DNA of 11,041 nucleotides from Peptococcaceae bacterium (GTDB lineage: Bacteria; Bacillota; DSM-12270; Thermacetogeniales; Thermacetogeniaceae): assembly GCA_003160265.1 (NCBI GenBank), contig PLQY01000036.1:4814-15854 (forward strand), written 5' to 3'. Shown here one piece after another: positions 4,693 to 9,368 of the stretch. The notes under the pieces were generated by a model. It was not told the origin of the DNA. It saw only the letters and a program-made list of their open reading frames with translations, and did no database searches. Position 1 is the stretch's first letter, and each line of letters begins with the position of its first letter. Both the position numbers and the translations under genes were made by a program.

Positions 4693-4771
4693 AGTGTTGA
4701 GTTATGAGTAATGAGAATCCTCGAATTTCTCTCTCTTGAAACTTATCACTCGATCCTCATCACTCATTACT
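4693..4771. repeat. Heptanucleotide inverted-repeat element A, between DUF881 and cimA stops
   Basis: Four 7-base units follow the DUF881 stop on the plus strand (AGTGTTG, AGTTATG, AGTAATG, AGAATCC; 4693-4720). Four matching units on the minus strand end cimA (AGTAATG, AGTGATG, AGGATCG, AGTGATA; 4771 down to 4744). The two arms are inverted relative to each other around a 23-base centre (4721-4743) that is not itself symmetric. AGTAATGAG (4707-4715) and CTCATTACT (4763-4771) are exact reverse complements. The right arm includes the cimA stop codon and its last codons. No T-run typical of an intrinsic terminator is present, but the position between convergent genes would suit a bidirectional 3'-end structure. 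Confidence 0.65.
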
Positions 4772-6364
4772 TGATTTCAGCAGGGCGTAGTTCATGCTGT
4801 CTGCGAGGGCCTGCCAACTGGCCTCGATGATGTTCTCGGAAACCCCCACAGTGCTCCAGACATCCTGATTGTTCGAGGACTCGATCAGTACCCGCACCGT
4901 AGAATTGGTGCCATCCTTGCCGTCCAGCACCCGCACCTTGTAGTCCACCAGGTGCATCTCCCCGAGGCAGGAGTAGGACCCCTCCAGGGCCTTGCGGAGG
5001 GCGTTGTCCAGGGCGGCCACAGGCCCGTTCCCCTCTGCGGCGGTATGCATCACCTGGTCGCCCACCCACAGCTTGATGGTGGCCTCGGTGCTGATCACCC
5101 CGCCGTCATCCGGGCGCTTGAACACATGGACATTCAGCCTTTCCAGGGTGAAGAACTCCCGGCACTGCCCGAGCGCACGCCGCAGCAACAGCTCCAGGGA
5201 GGCGTCGGCCGCCTCGTACTGGTAGCCCCGGTGCTCCAGGTCCTTGATCTGTTGGATCAGGTCGCGGACCTCGGTGCTGCCCTGCTGGAGGTCGAGGCCG
5301 AGTTCCTTGGCCTTGCTGAAGATGTTGCTGAGCCCCGACAGCTCCGACACCAGCACGCGCCGGTGGTTGCCCACCAGGGCCGGATCTATGTGCTCGTACG
5401 TCAGGGGACTCCTCAGGATGGCGCTCACGTGAATGCCGCCCTTGTGGGCGAAGGCGCTCGCCCCCACGAAGGACTGCTGGGTGCGGGGGGTCATGTTGGC
5501 GATCTCGTCCACGTAGTGGGAGGCCTCGGTCAGGTGCTGCAGCAGCCCGGGCTCGATGCAGTCGCAGCCCATCTTGAGCTGCAGATCGGGGATCACCGAG
5601 CACAAATTGGCGTTGCCGCAGCGCTCCCCGTAGCCGTTGATGGTGCCCTGGACCATGCGCATCCCGCAGCGCACGGCGGCGATGCTGTTGGCCACCGCCA
5701 GTTCCCCGTCGTTGTGGGTATGAATGCCCAGCGGCGTGTCGATAGCCCGGGCGATCCGCCCGCAGATCTCCTCGATCTCATAGGTGAGAGTGCCGCCGTT
5801 GGTGTCGCAGAGCACGATCCAGTCCGCCCCGGCTGCGGCGGCCGTCTTCAGGGTGGCCAGGGCATAGTCCGGGTTGGCCTTGAAGCCGTCGAAGAAGTGC
5901 TCGGCATCGTAGACCACCTCCCGGCCCCTGGCCTTCATATAGGCGACGCTGTCCCGGATCATGTCCAGGTTCTCCTCCAGGGTGGTCTGGAGGGCGGTGT
6001 GCACGTGGAAGTCCCAGGTCTTGCCGACCAGGCATACGCAGGGAGTCTCCGCCTCCAGCAGCGCCCGGATGTTGGCGTCATCGGCGACGCCGGCCCCTGC
6101 CTTGCGGGTCGACCCGAAGGCGGCGATCCTGGCATGCTGCAGGGCCAGGCTGCGCACGCGCTGAAAATACTCGGTATCCTTGGGGTTGGAACCGGGCCAG
6201 CCACCCTCCACGTAGGCCACGCCCAGATCATCCAGCTTCCTGGTGATCTTCAGTTTGTCGGCGACGGTGAGACTGAACCCCTCCGCCTGGGCGCCGTCCC
6301 GGAGGGTGGTGTCGTAGATCTGCACCTTTACCTTGTTGTCCAAGTAATCCCCACTTTGGATCAT
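4760..6364 (-). CDS. cimA: (R)-citramalate synthase CimA
   Basis: This enzyme of the LeuA-like DRE-TIM family condenses pyruvate with acetyl-CoA to (R)-citramalate, the first step of threonine-independent isoleucine synthesis. The catalytic barrel spans about residues 14-285, with DTTLRDGAQAEG at 18-29, metal-ligand motif HTHND at 215-219 and NGYGERCGNANL at 243-254. The GAQAEG and YVEGGWPGSNPKD segments are characteristic of the CimA branch; LeuA has GEQSPG and EAGFPIASPGD. A regulatory/dimerisation domain follows at about 405-525 (EGNGPVAALDNALRKAL; VDYKVRVLDGKDGTNSTVRVLIE), implying end-product feedback. The start is uncertain. At the ATG used here AAAGG directly abuts the codon; an in-frame stop lies 12 bases upstream; a TTG at 6343 (codon 8, giving MDNKVKVQIYDTT) fits family N-termini better. 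It is the last gene of the leu cluster, 78 bases after leuB. The final codons are made of heptamer repeat. Confidence 0.95.
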   Translation of the reverse strand: MIQSGDYLDNKVKVQIYDTTLRDGAQAEGFSLTVADKLKITRKLDDLGVAYVEGGWPGSNPKDTEYFQRVRSLALQHARIAAFGSTRKAGAGVADDANIRALLEAETPCVCLVGKTWDFHVHTALQTTLEENLDMIRDSVAYMKARGREVVYDAEHFFDGFKANPDYALATLKTAAAAGADWIVLCDTNGGTLTYEIEEICGRIARAIDTPLGIHTHNDGELAVANSIAAVRCGMRMVQGTINGYGERCGNANLCSVIPDLQLKMGCDCIEPGLLQHLTEASHYVDEIANMTPRTQQSFVGASAFAHKGGIHVSAILRSPLTYEHIDPALVGNHRRVLVSELSGLSNIFSKAKELGLDLQQGSTEVRDLIQQIKDLEHRGYQYEAADASLELLLRRALGQCREFFTLERLNVHVFKRPDDGGVISTEATIKLWVGDQVMHTAAEGNGPVAALDNALRKALEGSYSCLGEMHLVDYKVRVLDGKDGTNSTVRVLIESSNNQDVWSTVGVSENIIEASWQALADSMNYALLKSSNE

Positions 6365-6374
6365 CCTTTCATAT

Positions 6375-6444
6375 TAGTAGTTGTCCTTTAGTCGTTGGAT
6401 GCATGCAAGCCTGCATGCCTGCTCACCACTCATTACTCATTACT
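6375..6444. repeat. Heptanucleotide inverted-repeat element B with palindromic core, between leuB and cimA
   Basis: On the minus strand four 7-base units run from the leuB stop: AGTAATG, AGTAATG, AGTGGTG, AGCAGGC (6444 down to 6417). A perfect palindrome follows (GCATGCA-AGCC-TGCATGC on the plus strand, 6401-6418). The other arm, 6375-6402, divides into TAGTAGT, TGTCCTT, TAGTCGT and TGGATGC on the plus strand; the first and third are clearly related, the others weakly. The layout is like elements A and C. The leuB TAG is fused to the first unit. Confidence 0.6.
6401..6418. repeat. Perfect palindrome at the centre of element B
   Basis: GCATGCA (6401-6407), loop AGCC and TGCATGC (6412-6418) form a perfect 7-bp stem. 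It lies in the leuB-cimA spacer, 37 bases upstream of the cimA start. Confidence 0.7.
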
Positions 6445-7991: not shown

Positions 7992-9253
7992 TGCGCGACC
8001 TCCTCCGGGTGGGTGATGTAGCCGGTAATGGCAGTGGCTGCGGCCACCGCCGGCCCCGCCAGGTAGACCTCGCTCTCCGGATGGCCCATCCGTCCCACAA
8101 AGTTGCGGTTGGTAGTGGACAGCGCCCTCTCGCCGTGGGCGAGGACGCCCATGTGGCCGCCCAGGCAGGGCCCGCAGGTGGGTGTGCTGACTGCCGCCCC
8201 GGCCTCCACGAAGACTTCCAGCAGTCCCTCCCGCATCGCCTGCAGGTAGATCTCCTGGGTGCCCGGGATCACGATCAGGCGCAGCCTGCTGCTGGCGCGG
8301 CGCCCCTTGAGGATGCCGGCCGCGGTTCTCAGGTCCTCCAGACGCCCGTTGGTGCAGGAGCCGATCACCACCTGGTCGACGGCGATCCCCGCCGCCTCCG
8401 AGACCGGCCTGGAGTTCTCGGGCAGGTGCGGGAAAGCCACCTGGGGCTCGATCTGCCCCGCCTCATACTCGTACACCTCGACGTAGCAGGCATCCGGGTC
8501 GCTGGCATAGACCTGGAATTCCCGTTTCTTCCGGCCTGCCACAAAGTCCAGCGTCTTGTCGTCCGGAGCGACGATGCCGTTCTTGGCGCCCGCCTCCACG
8601 GCCATGTTGCACATGGTCAGCCGGCCTTCCACCGAGAGGGCGCCGATCGTCTCCCCGGCGAACTCCATCGCCCGGTAGCGCGCTCCCTCCACCCCGATCT
8701 GGCCAATGGTGTAGAGGATCAGGTCCTTGCCGCCCACCCAGGGGCGCAGTTCACCGTGAAAGACGAACTTCATGCTCTCCGGCACCTTGAACCAACACTC
8801 CCCCAGGGCCATGCCCGCCGCCAGATCGGTGCTCCCGACCCCGGTGGCGAACGCCCCCAGCGCCCCGTAGGTGCAGGTGTGGGAATCCGCTCCGATCATG
8901 CAGTCGCCGGGCAGCACCAGCCCCTGTTCCGGCAGCAGGCAGTGCTCGATCCCCATGGCACCCACGTCAAAGTAGTTGACGATCCCGAACTCCCGGGCAA
9001 ACTCCCGGATCACCAGGCACTGCTCCGCAGACTTGATGTCCTTGTTGGGGGTGAAGTGGTCCATCACCAGGACCACCCGCCCGGGGTCGAAAACCTTGCG
9101 GAGATCCAGCTTGCGAAACTCCTGGATGGCTAACGGGGCGGTGATGTCGTTGGCCAGTACCAGGTCCAGCCTGCAGTTGACCAGTTCGCCAGGGGCCACC
9201 CGCTCCCTGCCGGCGTGGCCGGCCAGGATCTTTTCAGTTATCGTCATGCCCAT
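7988..9253 (-). CDS. leuC: 3-isopropylmalate dehydratase large subunit LeuC
   Basis: This is an aconitase-family enzyme holding a [4Fe-4S] cluster; with LeuD it isomerises 2-isopropylmalate and the citramalate-derived analogue. The three cluster cysteines are visible: C300 in VIGSCTNGRLEDL, and C360 and C363 in STPTCGPCLGGHMG. GADSHTCTYGALGAFATGVGSTD is at 121-143, and GPAVAAATAITGYITHP closes the protein. At 421 residues it is the shorter archaeal/clostridial (HacA-like) form; E. coli LeuC has about 466. The ATG at 9253 is preceded by AGGGGGG with about 6 bases spacing; a second in-frame ATG two codons later is less well placed. It lies 99 bases after leuA, with a repeat-rich hairpin region between them, and overlaps leuD by four bases. 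Confidence 0.97.
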   Translation of the reverse strand: MGMTITEKILAGHAGRERVAPGELVNCRLDLVLANDITAPLAIQEFRKLDLRKVFDPGRVVLVMDHFTPNKDIKSAEQCLVIREFAREFGIVNYFDVGAMGIEHCLLPEQGLVLPGDCMIGADSHTCTYGALGAFATGVGSTDLAAGMALGECWFKVPESMKFVFHGELRPWVGGKDLILYTIGQIGVEGARYRAMEFAGETIGALSVEGRLTMCNMAVEAGAKNGIVAPDDKTLDFVAGRKKREFQVYASDPDACYVEVYEYEAGQIEPQVAFPHLPENSRPVSEAAGIAVDQVVIGSCTNGRLEDLRTAAGILKGRRASSRLRLIVIPGTQEIYLQAMREGLLEVFVEAGAAVSTPTCGPCLGGHMGVLAHGERALSTTNRNFVGRMGHPESEVYLAGPAVAAATAITGYITHPEEVAQ

Positions 9254-9271
9254 GATGTTCCCCCCTCTTGG

Positions 9272-9368
9272 GAGGTGAGAGGTGTGCGGTTGGAGGTGAG
9301 ATATTTGTTGGTTTTGGCTTTGCCAAAACCTTCTATTCCCGCTTCTCGCTTCTCACTTCTCACTTCTC
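9272..9368. repeat. Heptanucleotide inverted-repeat element C with palindromic core, between leuA and leuC
   Basis: On the minus strand leuA ends in four units GAGAAGT, GAGAAGT, GAGAAGC, GAGAAGC (9368 down to 9341). The opposite arm on the plus strand reads GAGGTGA, GAGGTGT, GCGGTTG, GAGGTGA (9272-9299), so the arms are inverted relative to each other and similar in sequence. Between them is a perfect 9-bp hairpin (9310-9330). The leuA stop codon (9353-9355) lies inside the units, so they encode the last residues RSEK. The element fills nearly all of the leuA-leuC spacer. Confidence 0.7.
9310..9330. repeat. Perfect hairpin in the leuA-leuC spacer
   Basis: GGTTTTGGC (9310-9318), loop TTT and GCCAAAACC (9322-9330) form a perfect 9-bp stem. 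On the transcribed (minus) strand it is followed by AACAAATATC, not a T-run, so full termination is unlikely. It could stabilise or punctuate the leuA-leuCDB mRNA. Confidence 0.7.

What the first reader, a model, noticed from the sequence alone, without database searches (positions are those of the whole stretch)
4693..9368. A family of heptanucleotide inverted-repeat elements at three gene junctions
Three spacers (4693-4771, 6375-6444, 9272-9368) share one plan: about four 7-base units per arm (28 bases), the arms in inverted orientation, around a short centre. In B and C the centre is a perfect palindrome. The unit sequence differs between elements (AGTAATG-like in A and B, GAGAAGT/GAGGTGA-like in C) while the period and arm length are kept. 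This suggests selection on structure or spacing, or a mobile or amplifying repeat that evolves by unit turnover. Heptanucleotide tandem repeats (STRRs) are known in heterocystous cyanobacteria, but I know of no described inverted heptad element in Clostridia.
Basis: partly seen in the sequence, partly recalled or inferred. Interest (0 to 1): 0.8.

Follow-up and report, generated by a model that had tools for sequence, protein, structure and literature searches.

The report
Seven-base inverted-repeat elements between genes
This genome carries many small DNA elements with mirrored arms built of about four or five seven-base units, and between close relatives they come, go and swap types at the same gene junctions, which gives a concrete handle on why seven-base repeats are common between bacterial genes.

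Summary
The observation largely holds. A and C are inverted arms of 7-base units; B is a chimera with AGTAATG units only on its right. They belong to a large population: 10 period-7 arrays in 270 kb of this genome taken without regard to hits, against none at lags 4, 5, 8, 9, 10, 11 or 13. Units sort into types (my names); at least I and II recur with shared centres. Array length peaks at 28-34 nt. Array pairs are inverted in 15 of 20 cases here and in 14 of 14 in loci mostly of other phyla.

Against a congener with mostly 92-98% identical flanks, 14 junctions resolve: 2 keep the element, 3 keep type or ends with a new centre or layout, 6 hold a different heptad type, 3 hold no heptad array. 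C replaced about 54 bp, including the end of leuA. One in-frame copy lies inside dxr. Two clean sites show no target duplication. REP-type (Y1) transposases were not found in this genus.

I read them as non-autonomous, MITE-like elements spread by break-and-patch copying in trans; the machinery is unknown. Paired arms of five heptads were already described in Geobacter metallireducens.

The parts
4690..4717 (.). element A, left arm (type I units, TGAGTNA); the upstream gene's stop codon (4690-4692) lies in its outermost unit
   Evidence: segment 4693-4717; ORF 4006-4692
4718..4743 (.). element A, centre (CCTCGAATTTCTC..., shared by eye with other type I copies)
4744..4771 (.). element A, right arm (type I, one degenerate unit); holds the cimA stop codon (4760-4762)
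   Evidence: sequence; lag-14 segment 4732-4771; ORF 4760-6364
6374..6397 (.). element B, left half: weak period 7, TTAGTCG/TTGG-like (type V), not AGTAATG
   Evidence: lag-14 segment 6374-6397; by eye
6401..6418 (.). element B, centre hairpin GCATGCA-AGCC-TGCATGC
6422..6444 (.). element B, right arm (AGTAATG)n; abuts the leuB stop codon (6443-6445)
   Evidence: identical in L061
9269..9306 (.). element C, left arm (type II, GAGGTGA/GAGAGGT)
9310..9330 (.). element C, centre hairpin GGTTTTGGC-TTT-GCCAAAACC within the type II core
9336..9368 (.). element C, right arm (type II, GAGAAGT on the minus strand); holds the leuA stop codon (9353-9355)
   Evidence: spacer without arrays in L061 and L063

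Best explanation
The three spacers hold members of a large population of small non-autonomous mobile elements: two inverted arms, each an array of about four to five 7-bp sites, around a type-specific or exchangeable centre. They settle where insertion is tolerated (between a stop codon and the next ribosome-binding site, at gene 3' ends, once in frame inside a gene), and occupied junctions are used again. New copies are patched in, often with loss of adjacent sequence and without a visible target duplication, and can be assembled from pieces of other copies; so a trans-acting break-and-patch or template-switch process is more likely than a classical cut-and-paste transposase. Shown: population, period, arm length, inverted layout, near-fixed and free unit positions, gains, losses and replacements, nesting, mosaicism in one copy. 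Inferred: that the arms are arrays of protein-binding sites that bring the ends together, and that a trans-acting enzyme or repair pathway does the copying.
For: Period 7 far above other lags. Shared cores within types I and II (by eye). Array length peak at 28-34 nt, 27 of 66. Inverted pairs 15 of 20 and 14 of 14. Near-fixed plus free unit positions. Gain with replacement at C; a G013 element with loss of about 110 bp of the upstream gene. Filled and empty sites without visible target duplication. Different types at the same junction in congeners, e.g. three types in three species at J3. Nested arms L L L L R R R. Mosaic copy: right half 97% identical to a place 5 kb away on the same contig, left half with only short or weak matches. 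In-frame copy in dxr.
Against: No mobilising gene found; ORFs between arrays were ordinary host genes by eye, but only gaps of 150-2500 bp in fetched loci were looked at. Y1_Tnp absent in 3 of 3 genomes of the genus, two of them incomplete. By a crude ORF of 10 and 15 of 47 arrays fall inside ORFs. Some elements are simply inherited (B, L251:4917) and one was lost. Two unselected 20-kb stretches of G014 gave only one AT-rich array. Assembly gaps (N) touch several copies, so some ends may be artefacts.
Confidence: 0.5

Rival explanations
1. Simple-sequence slippage plus fold-back: tandem heptads arise by polymerase slippage in spacers and template switching on a hairpin makes the inverted partner; no mobile element is needed.
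For: Arms are tandem repeats; units within one arm are alike while arms of one element differ; a 98-nt tandem duplication shows local instability.
Against: Type II copies at different loci share core and variant units (by eye); length peaks at 28-34 nt instead of falling from the detection limit; variation is concentrated at one or two unit positions; other periods are not made.
Confidence: 0.15
2. Regulatory binding sites: the arrays bind a global regulator or nucleoid protein and are kept for gene control, the view taken for the Geobacter metallireducens paired sites.
For: Near-fixed plus free unit positions look like binding sites; paired layout; precedent PMC2700814 (passages).
Against: At the same junction congeners hold another type or none in 9 of 14 cases, which is hard to square with a conserved regulon.
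Confidence: 0.1
3. RNA hairpins kept for transcript processing, stability or attenuation.
For: Strong predicted folds, e.g. C at -52 kcal/mol on one strand; many copies sit inside operons.
Against: The better-folding strand is the transcribed one in 5 of 12; free positions do not co-vary between arms; no Rfam match in five sources.
Confidence: 0.08
4. Heptad addition at breaks: a templated polymerase adds a 7-nt unit to both 3' ends of a break, so each end gains an array of the same unit and the repaired site shows inverted arms.
For: It predicts the inverted same-unit layout, constant period with changing unit, narrow arm length, deletions at C and at the G013 copy, and no target duplication.
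Against: Shared cores and shared arm variants among type II copies show copying of existing elements. No such enzyme is identified: the RVT_1 domain has 0 matches in G000 as held, 1 in G013, 4 in G014.
Confidence: 0.07

Closest known systems
[quoted passage not shown] passages and supplement captions in the main text)
   Same: Five tandem heptanucleotides per site, eight pairs on opposite strands at variable distance; also 49 elements with four tandem heptads; the paper notes that the proBA spacer is filled by a different conserved sequence in G. sulfurreducens.
   Different: Read there as regulator or IHF/HU sites; classes 1 and 2 have longer units (8 or 8-9 nt); the passages I saw give no junction-by-junction replacement, nesting or in-frame copies.
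Heptameric repeats of Xanthomonas and Nostoc (Rehm 2015, PMC4692102; passages)
   Same: Intergenic heptads; 70 and 75 inverted pairs in two Xanthomonas genomes.
   Different: One unit per genus (GGGNATC), studied as G-quadruplexes; [quoted passage not shown]
TAACTGA repeats (MacGregor 2015, PMC4679880; abstract and passages)
   Same: Intergenic tandem heptads in several phyla.
   Different: Direct, upstream of start codons, one unit sequence; one inverted case only.
MITEs and REPINs (PMC10969869, PMC3116915, PMC2817692: search listings only; definitions recalled)
   Same: Short non-coding inverted-repeat elements in spacers, moved in trans.
   Different: No Y1 (RAYT) gene found in the genus; no target duplication seen; arms are heptad arrays with exchangeable units.
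STRR heptads of heterocystous cyanobacteria
   Same: Tandem 7-base units between genes.
   Different: Inverted layout not known to me for them; not tested.

Membership tests
MITE | terminal inverted repeats, short, non-coding, dispersed copies | tested here: met
   Inverted arms and many copies; no cargo ORF noticed between arrays
MITE | target-site duplication | tested here: not met
   None visible at the two cleanest filled/empty pairs; few sites, aligned by eye
MITE | parent transposon with matching ends | not tested
   No systematic search; none noticed in the fetched loci
REPIN moved by a RAYT transposase | RAYT (Y1_Tnp) gene in the genome | tested here: not met
   PF01797: 0 of 3 in the genus (85, 71 and 98% complete), 15 of 17 in other family members
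REPIN moved by a RAYT transposase | GTAG- or CGTC-tagged palindromes | not tested
   Not scanned for
Geobacter metallireducens paired heptad sites | about five tandem heptads per arm in inverted pairs at variable distance | tested here: met
   compared with the wording; sequences of that paper's figures not seen
Geobacter metallireducens paired heptad sites | same unit sequence (MTYCTGA) | tested here: not met
   Unit consensuses differ
TAACTGA direct repeats | direct TAACTGA arrays upstream of start codons | tested here: not met
   Pairs are mostly inverted and the units differ
Known RNA family | Rfam match at gathering score | tested here: not met
   0 matches in window, L219, L220, L231, L251 (39,744 bases)

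The most novel reading that the evidence does not exclude
A widespread bacterial activity writes 7-nt repeats of varying sequence onto both ends of breaks in gene spacers; inverted heptad elements in several phyla, and the general intergenic heptamer excess, are its footprint, later spread and remodelled by copying.
Probability: 0.08. Interest if true: 0.95.

Novelty: new variant of a known kind. Interest (0 to 1): 0.6.

Why it matters
[quoted passage not shown] The present data suggest what many of them may be: arms of inverted elements of defined length that replace one another at gene junctions, in a ribosomal-protein operon and once inside a gene. That makes the old puzzle testable in closely related strains: new insertions, their ends and their donors can be read and the machinery sought.

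Tried and rejected
Selection on RNA folding: the better-folding strand is the sense strand in 5 of 12 (a thirteenth element had no known orientation) and there is no Rfam match. Arm-to-arm homogenisation or pairing at the free unit positions: none of 20 register tests exceeded permutation, smallest upper-tail p 0.204; type I matched less often than permuted in one register (7 of 39 against a mean of 0.37). In that set of 22 rows one right arm (L203) was badly delimited, two rows share a left arm, and the single type III row was not tested. RAYT as mobiliser: not found in the genus. Reverse transcriptase: 0, 1 and 4 matches in the genus, undecided. Cargo ORFs between arrays: ordinary host genes by eye. 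Stop codons in all frames as the purpose of the unit: fits types I and II, fails for units such as TTGGTCG (read by eye). The reversed-pattern control is useless here because the units read nearly the same backwards; lag controls were used instead.

Rows dropped from the junction count: L219:862-942 (two Ns in G000) and L227:689-870 (an N run in G013). L194:549-702 was kept although G000 has two Ns inside its left arm. Two of the six 'different type' calls rest on weak or short arrays in G013: A (lag-7 score 13) and argB 3' (by eye).
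Full report
WHAT IS IN THE WINDOW. The window is G000:C72:4814-15854 of a 1.78-Mb, 120-contig, 84.7% complete genome. By my reading of the ORFs (names recalled from sequence) it runs ybbR, cdaA, three small genes of a DUF881 cluster, then cimA, leuB, leuD, leuC and leuA on the minus strand. A lag scan puts its four best lag-7 segments at the arms of A, B and C. A and C are inverted arms of one unit family. B carries AGTAATG units only on the right; its left half resembles another unit type, so it looks chimeric.

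A GENOME-WIDE POPULATION. The pattern AGTAATGAGTAATGAGTG with up to 3 mismatches hits 85 places in this genome and GAG(N4GAG)3 with up to 1 mismatch hits 106; overlapping hits of one array are included, and one search listed only part of its places. In 20 stretches taken without regard to hits (269,985 bases) there are 10 lag-7 segments scoring 14 or more, on 5 of the 20; lags 4, 5, 8, 9, 10, 11 and 13 give none, lag 6 gives 3, lag 12 gives 1. In 34 stretches (527,425 bases: those 20, the window, and 13 chosen because they hold hits) there are 47 lag-7 segments, against 0, 0, 3, 0, 7, 1, 1, 5 and 2 at lags 4, 5, 6, 8, 9, 10, 11, 12 and 13. Of the 47, 32 lie mostly outside ORFs of at least 100 aa and 15 inside, although such ORFs cover 85%; in the unselected sample a similar crude call gave 6 outside and 4 inside. 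In 15 genomes of other genera of the family (262,943 bases) there is 1 lag-7 segment, in G015 (fetched, counted). Two stretches of the congener G014 not chosen for elements (40 kb) gave one AT-rich array, so not every member of the genus need be as rich. With GAG(N4GAG)3 exact, 23 of 61 genomes have a match, most in G000 (25), G051 (20) and G037 (17).

ANATOMY. I distinguish unit types by consensus: I GAGTNAT, II GNGANGT, III GANNTTC, IV GGATGCC-like (2 arrays only) and V TTGGNNG. Types I, II, III and V each have near-fixed positions and one or two free ones. In III and V this appears without any N in the assignment motif; for I and II the motif left position 5 free, so position 5 there is partly imposed. 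Array length peaks at 28-34 nt: 27 of 66 arrays, 19 shorter, 20 longer. Array pairs within 200 bp are inverted in 15 of 20 cases (4 direct, 1 unrelated), and in 3 of 3 in G013; of the four direct cases one is a 98-nt tandem duplication and one joins two neighbouring elements. By eye, type II copies share the core TTCTTGTTGGCATTGGC...GCCAATGCCTTCTATTCCC and the same variant units in the left arm, and many type I copies share CCTCGAATTTCTC... or TTGCTCATTTTACGTCACG.... L046 has a type II-like core inside arms of another unit, so arms and cores can be exchanged.

NOT ONLY THIS GENUS. Of 51 loci L090-L140 fetched with CimA (three bear Bacillota or Syntrophomonadaceae titles, the rest other phyla) 19 hold lag-7 arrays, and all 14 close pairs are inverted; 7 of these 14 come from one junction in related Geobacterales, so they are not independent. 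Lag-7 segments scoring 14 or more there number 42, against 0, 2, 10, 5, 15, 0, 1, 18 and 0 at lags 4, 5, 6, 8, 9, 10, 11, 12 and 13. At that junction (upstream of cimA) four Geomonas loci have CGTTCAA arms; a fifth (L125), with flanks 95-97% identical to L121, has GTTCTAC in both arms and a different centre. Between the L121/L126 and the L127/L129 pairs the arms are kept while the centre differs strongly. Twenty loci L070-L089 (Cohnella, Paenibacillus, one Fusobacteria record; 407 kb) and eight Thermacetogenium-like loci (84 kb) have no lag-7 segment at that score.

ORTHOLOGOUS JUNCTIONS. Two congeners are held. G013 has a contig of the length of L061's (Peptococcaceae palsa_1188, 21,892 bp) and G014 one of the length of L063's (Peptococcaceae nzgw226, 40,490 bp), so I take them as the same assemblies. 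Fourteen G000 element junctions within the window and five queries resolve against G013 or L061 (two more were dropped for N runs; the other catalogued elements were not compared). Kept: B, and the type III element at L251:4917. Same type or ends, new centre or layout: dxr, the type III element at L251:8646, and type V at map-infA (a remnant in G013, by eye). A different heptad type: A, J1, J2, J3, argB 3', L194:549-702. No heptad array: C, L227:2115-2155, and J4 (an unrelated 209-nt insert). Flanking identity is 80-98%, mostly 92-98%. J3 holds three different types in the three species. In the ribosomal-protein stretch I count about 17 junctions (my reading of the ORFs). All five occupied in G000 also hold an insert in G013, which has seven; by hand arithmetic that has chance 21 in 6188 if independent, or 0.03 if J4 is not counted in G013. 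G014 lacks an element at J1, J4 and rplF-rplR.

GAIN BY REPLACEMENT. At C both relatives share a LeuA end (GRPPGSG[RK]K..., read by eye) that the window lacks; there LeuA ends inside the arm, and 54 bp of L061 stand where the window has 110. At A the ends of both convergent genes lie in the arms. In G013 a type II half-element stands where the upstream gene lost about 110 bp that G000 and G014 keep. Two clean filled/empty pairs show no target duplication: rplF-rplR and L227:2115-2155. Loss also occurs: type V at secY-adk is in G013 and, one-armed, in G014, but not in G000.

NESTING AND MOSAICS. The G013 copy at J1 reads L L L L R R R. In G013 207 nt sit in the centre of a type III element where G000 has 4, with matching arms on both sides. 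The G013-only copy at rplF-rplR has a right half (58 nt) 97% identical to a place 5 kb away on the same contig; its left half has only a 24-nt and a 43-nt (79%) match in the three genomes. Together with chimeric B this points to piecewise copying. Inside dxr an in-frame element is present in G000 and G013 with different centres and absent in G014 (gene name recalled).

MECHANISM. I commit to non-autonomous mobile elements patched into spacers in trans, with heptad arrays as recognition sites (about 0.5). The RAYT route is not supported by the genomes held: Y1_Tnp in 0 of 3 genomes of the genus (two incomplete) and in 15 of 17 others of the family. Structure selection is not supported. The enzyme remains unknown.

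LITERATURE. Geobacter metallireducens class 3 sites (fifteen of sixteen with five tandem heptanucleotides, paired on opposite strands) are the closest description (PMC2700814, passages); that paper notes that the proBA spacer, which holds one such pair, is filled by a different conserved sequence in G. sulfurreducens; its classes 1 and 2 have units of 8 to 9 nt. Xanthomonas inverted heptad pairs: PMC4692102 (passages). TAACTGA: PMC4679880 (abstract and passages). The general puzzle: PMC6344855 (passages). PMC4060949 and PMC4853749 (passages) and PMC4666352 (abstract and outline) added nothing decisive. My eight paper searches showed no description of junction-by-junction replacement among heptad elements; most subscription journals and all preprints are not held.

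Noticed in passing
window 10976-11041 (upstream of leuA); L251:10934-11079; L263:5478-5612; L390:117-252: A second, unrelated hairpin repeat (CCGCTTC..GAAGCGGGGGCATTAGAGCGGGTAGTCATC) with at least 30 places in G013; clean insertions of 133-134 nt in G013 against 3 and 0 nt in G000; no Rfam match in the sources searched.
   Followed up: partly
L253:13277-13332 (= L194:1178-1233): A heptad element lies in frame inside dxr in G000 and G013, with different centres, and is absent in G014, like an in-frame palindromic element.
   Followed up: partly
L283:7786-7988: A 98-nt tandem duplication of half a type I element between rplX and rplE.
   Followed up: no
window 6397-7503 (leuB): leuB finds no nucleotide match in seven related loci that match on both sides of it (L062, L063, L065-L069), but is 95% identical in L061: possibly a foreign leuB. 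Element B abuts it.
   Followed up: no
window 2746-2809: A 26-nt inverted repeat (96% complementary, 12-nt loop) near the start of the DUF881 cluster.
   Followed up: no
L284:6036-6160, query bases 84-105: A 21-22-nt hairpin module GCGCCCGCAAGCGGGCACCCG inside type V elements recurs at about 19 further places in G000 and G013.
   Followed up: no
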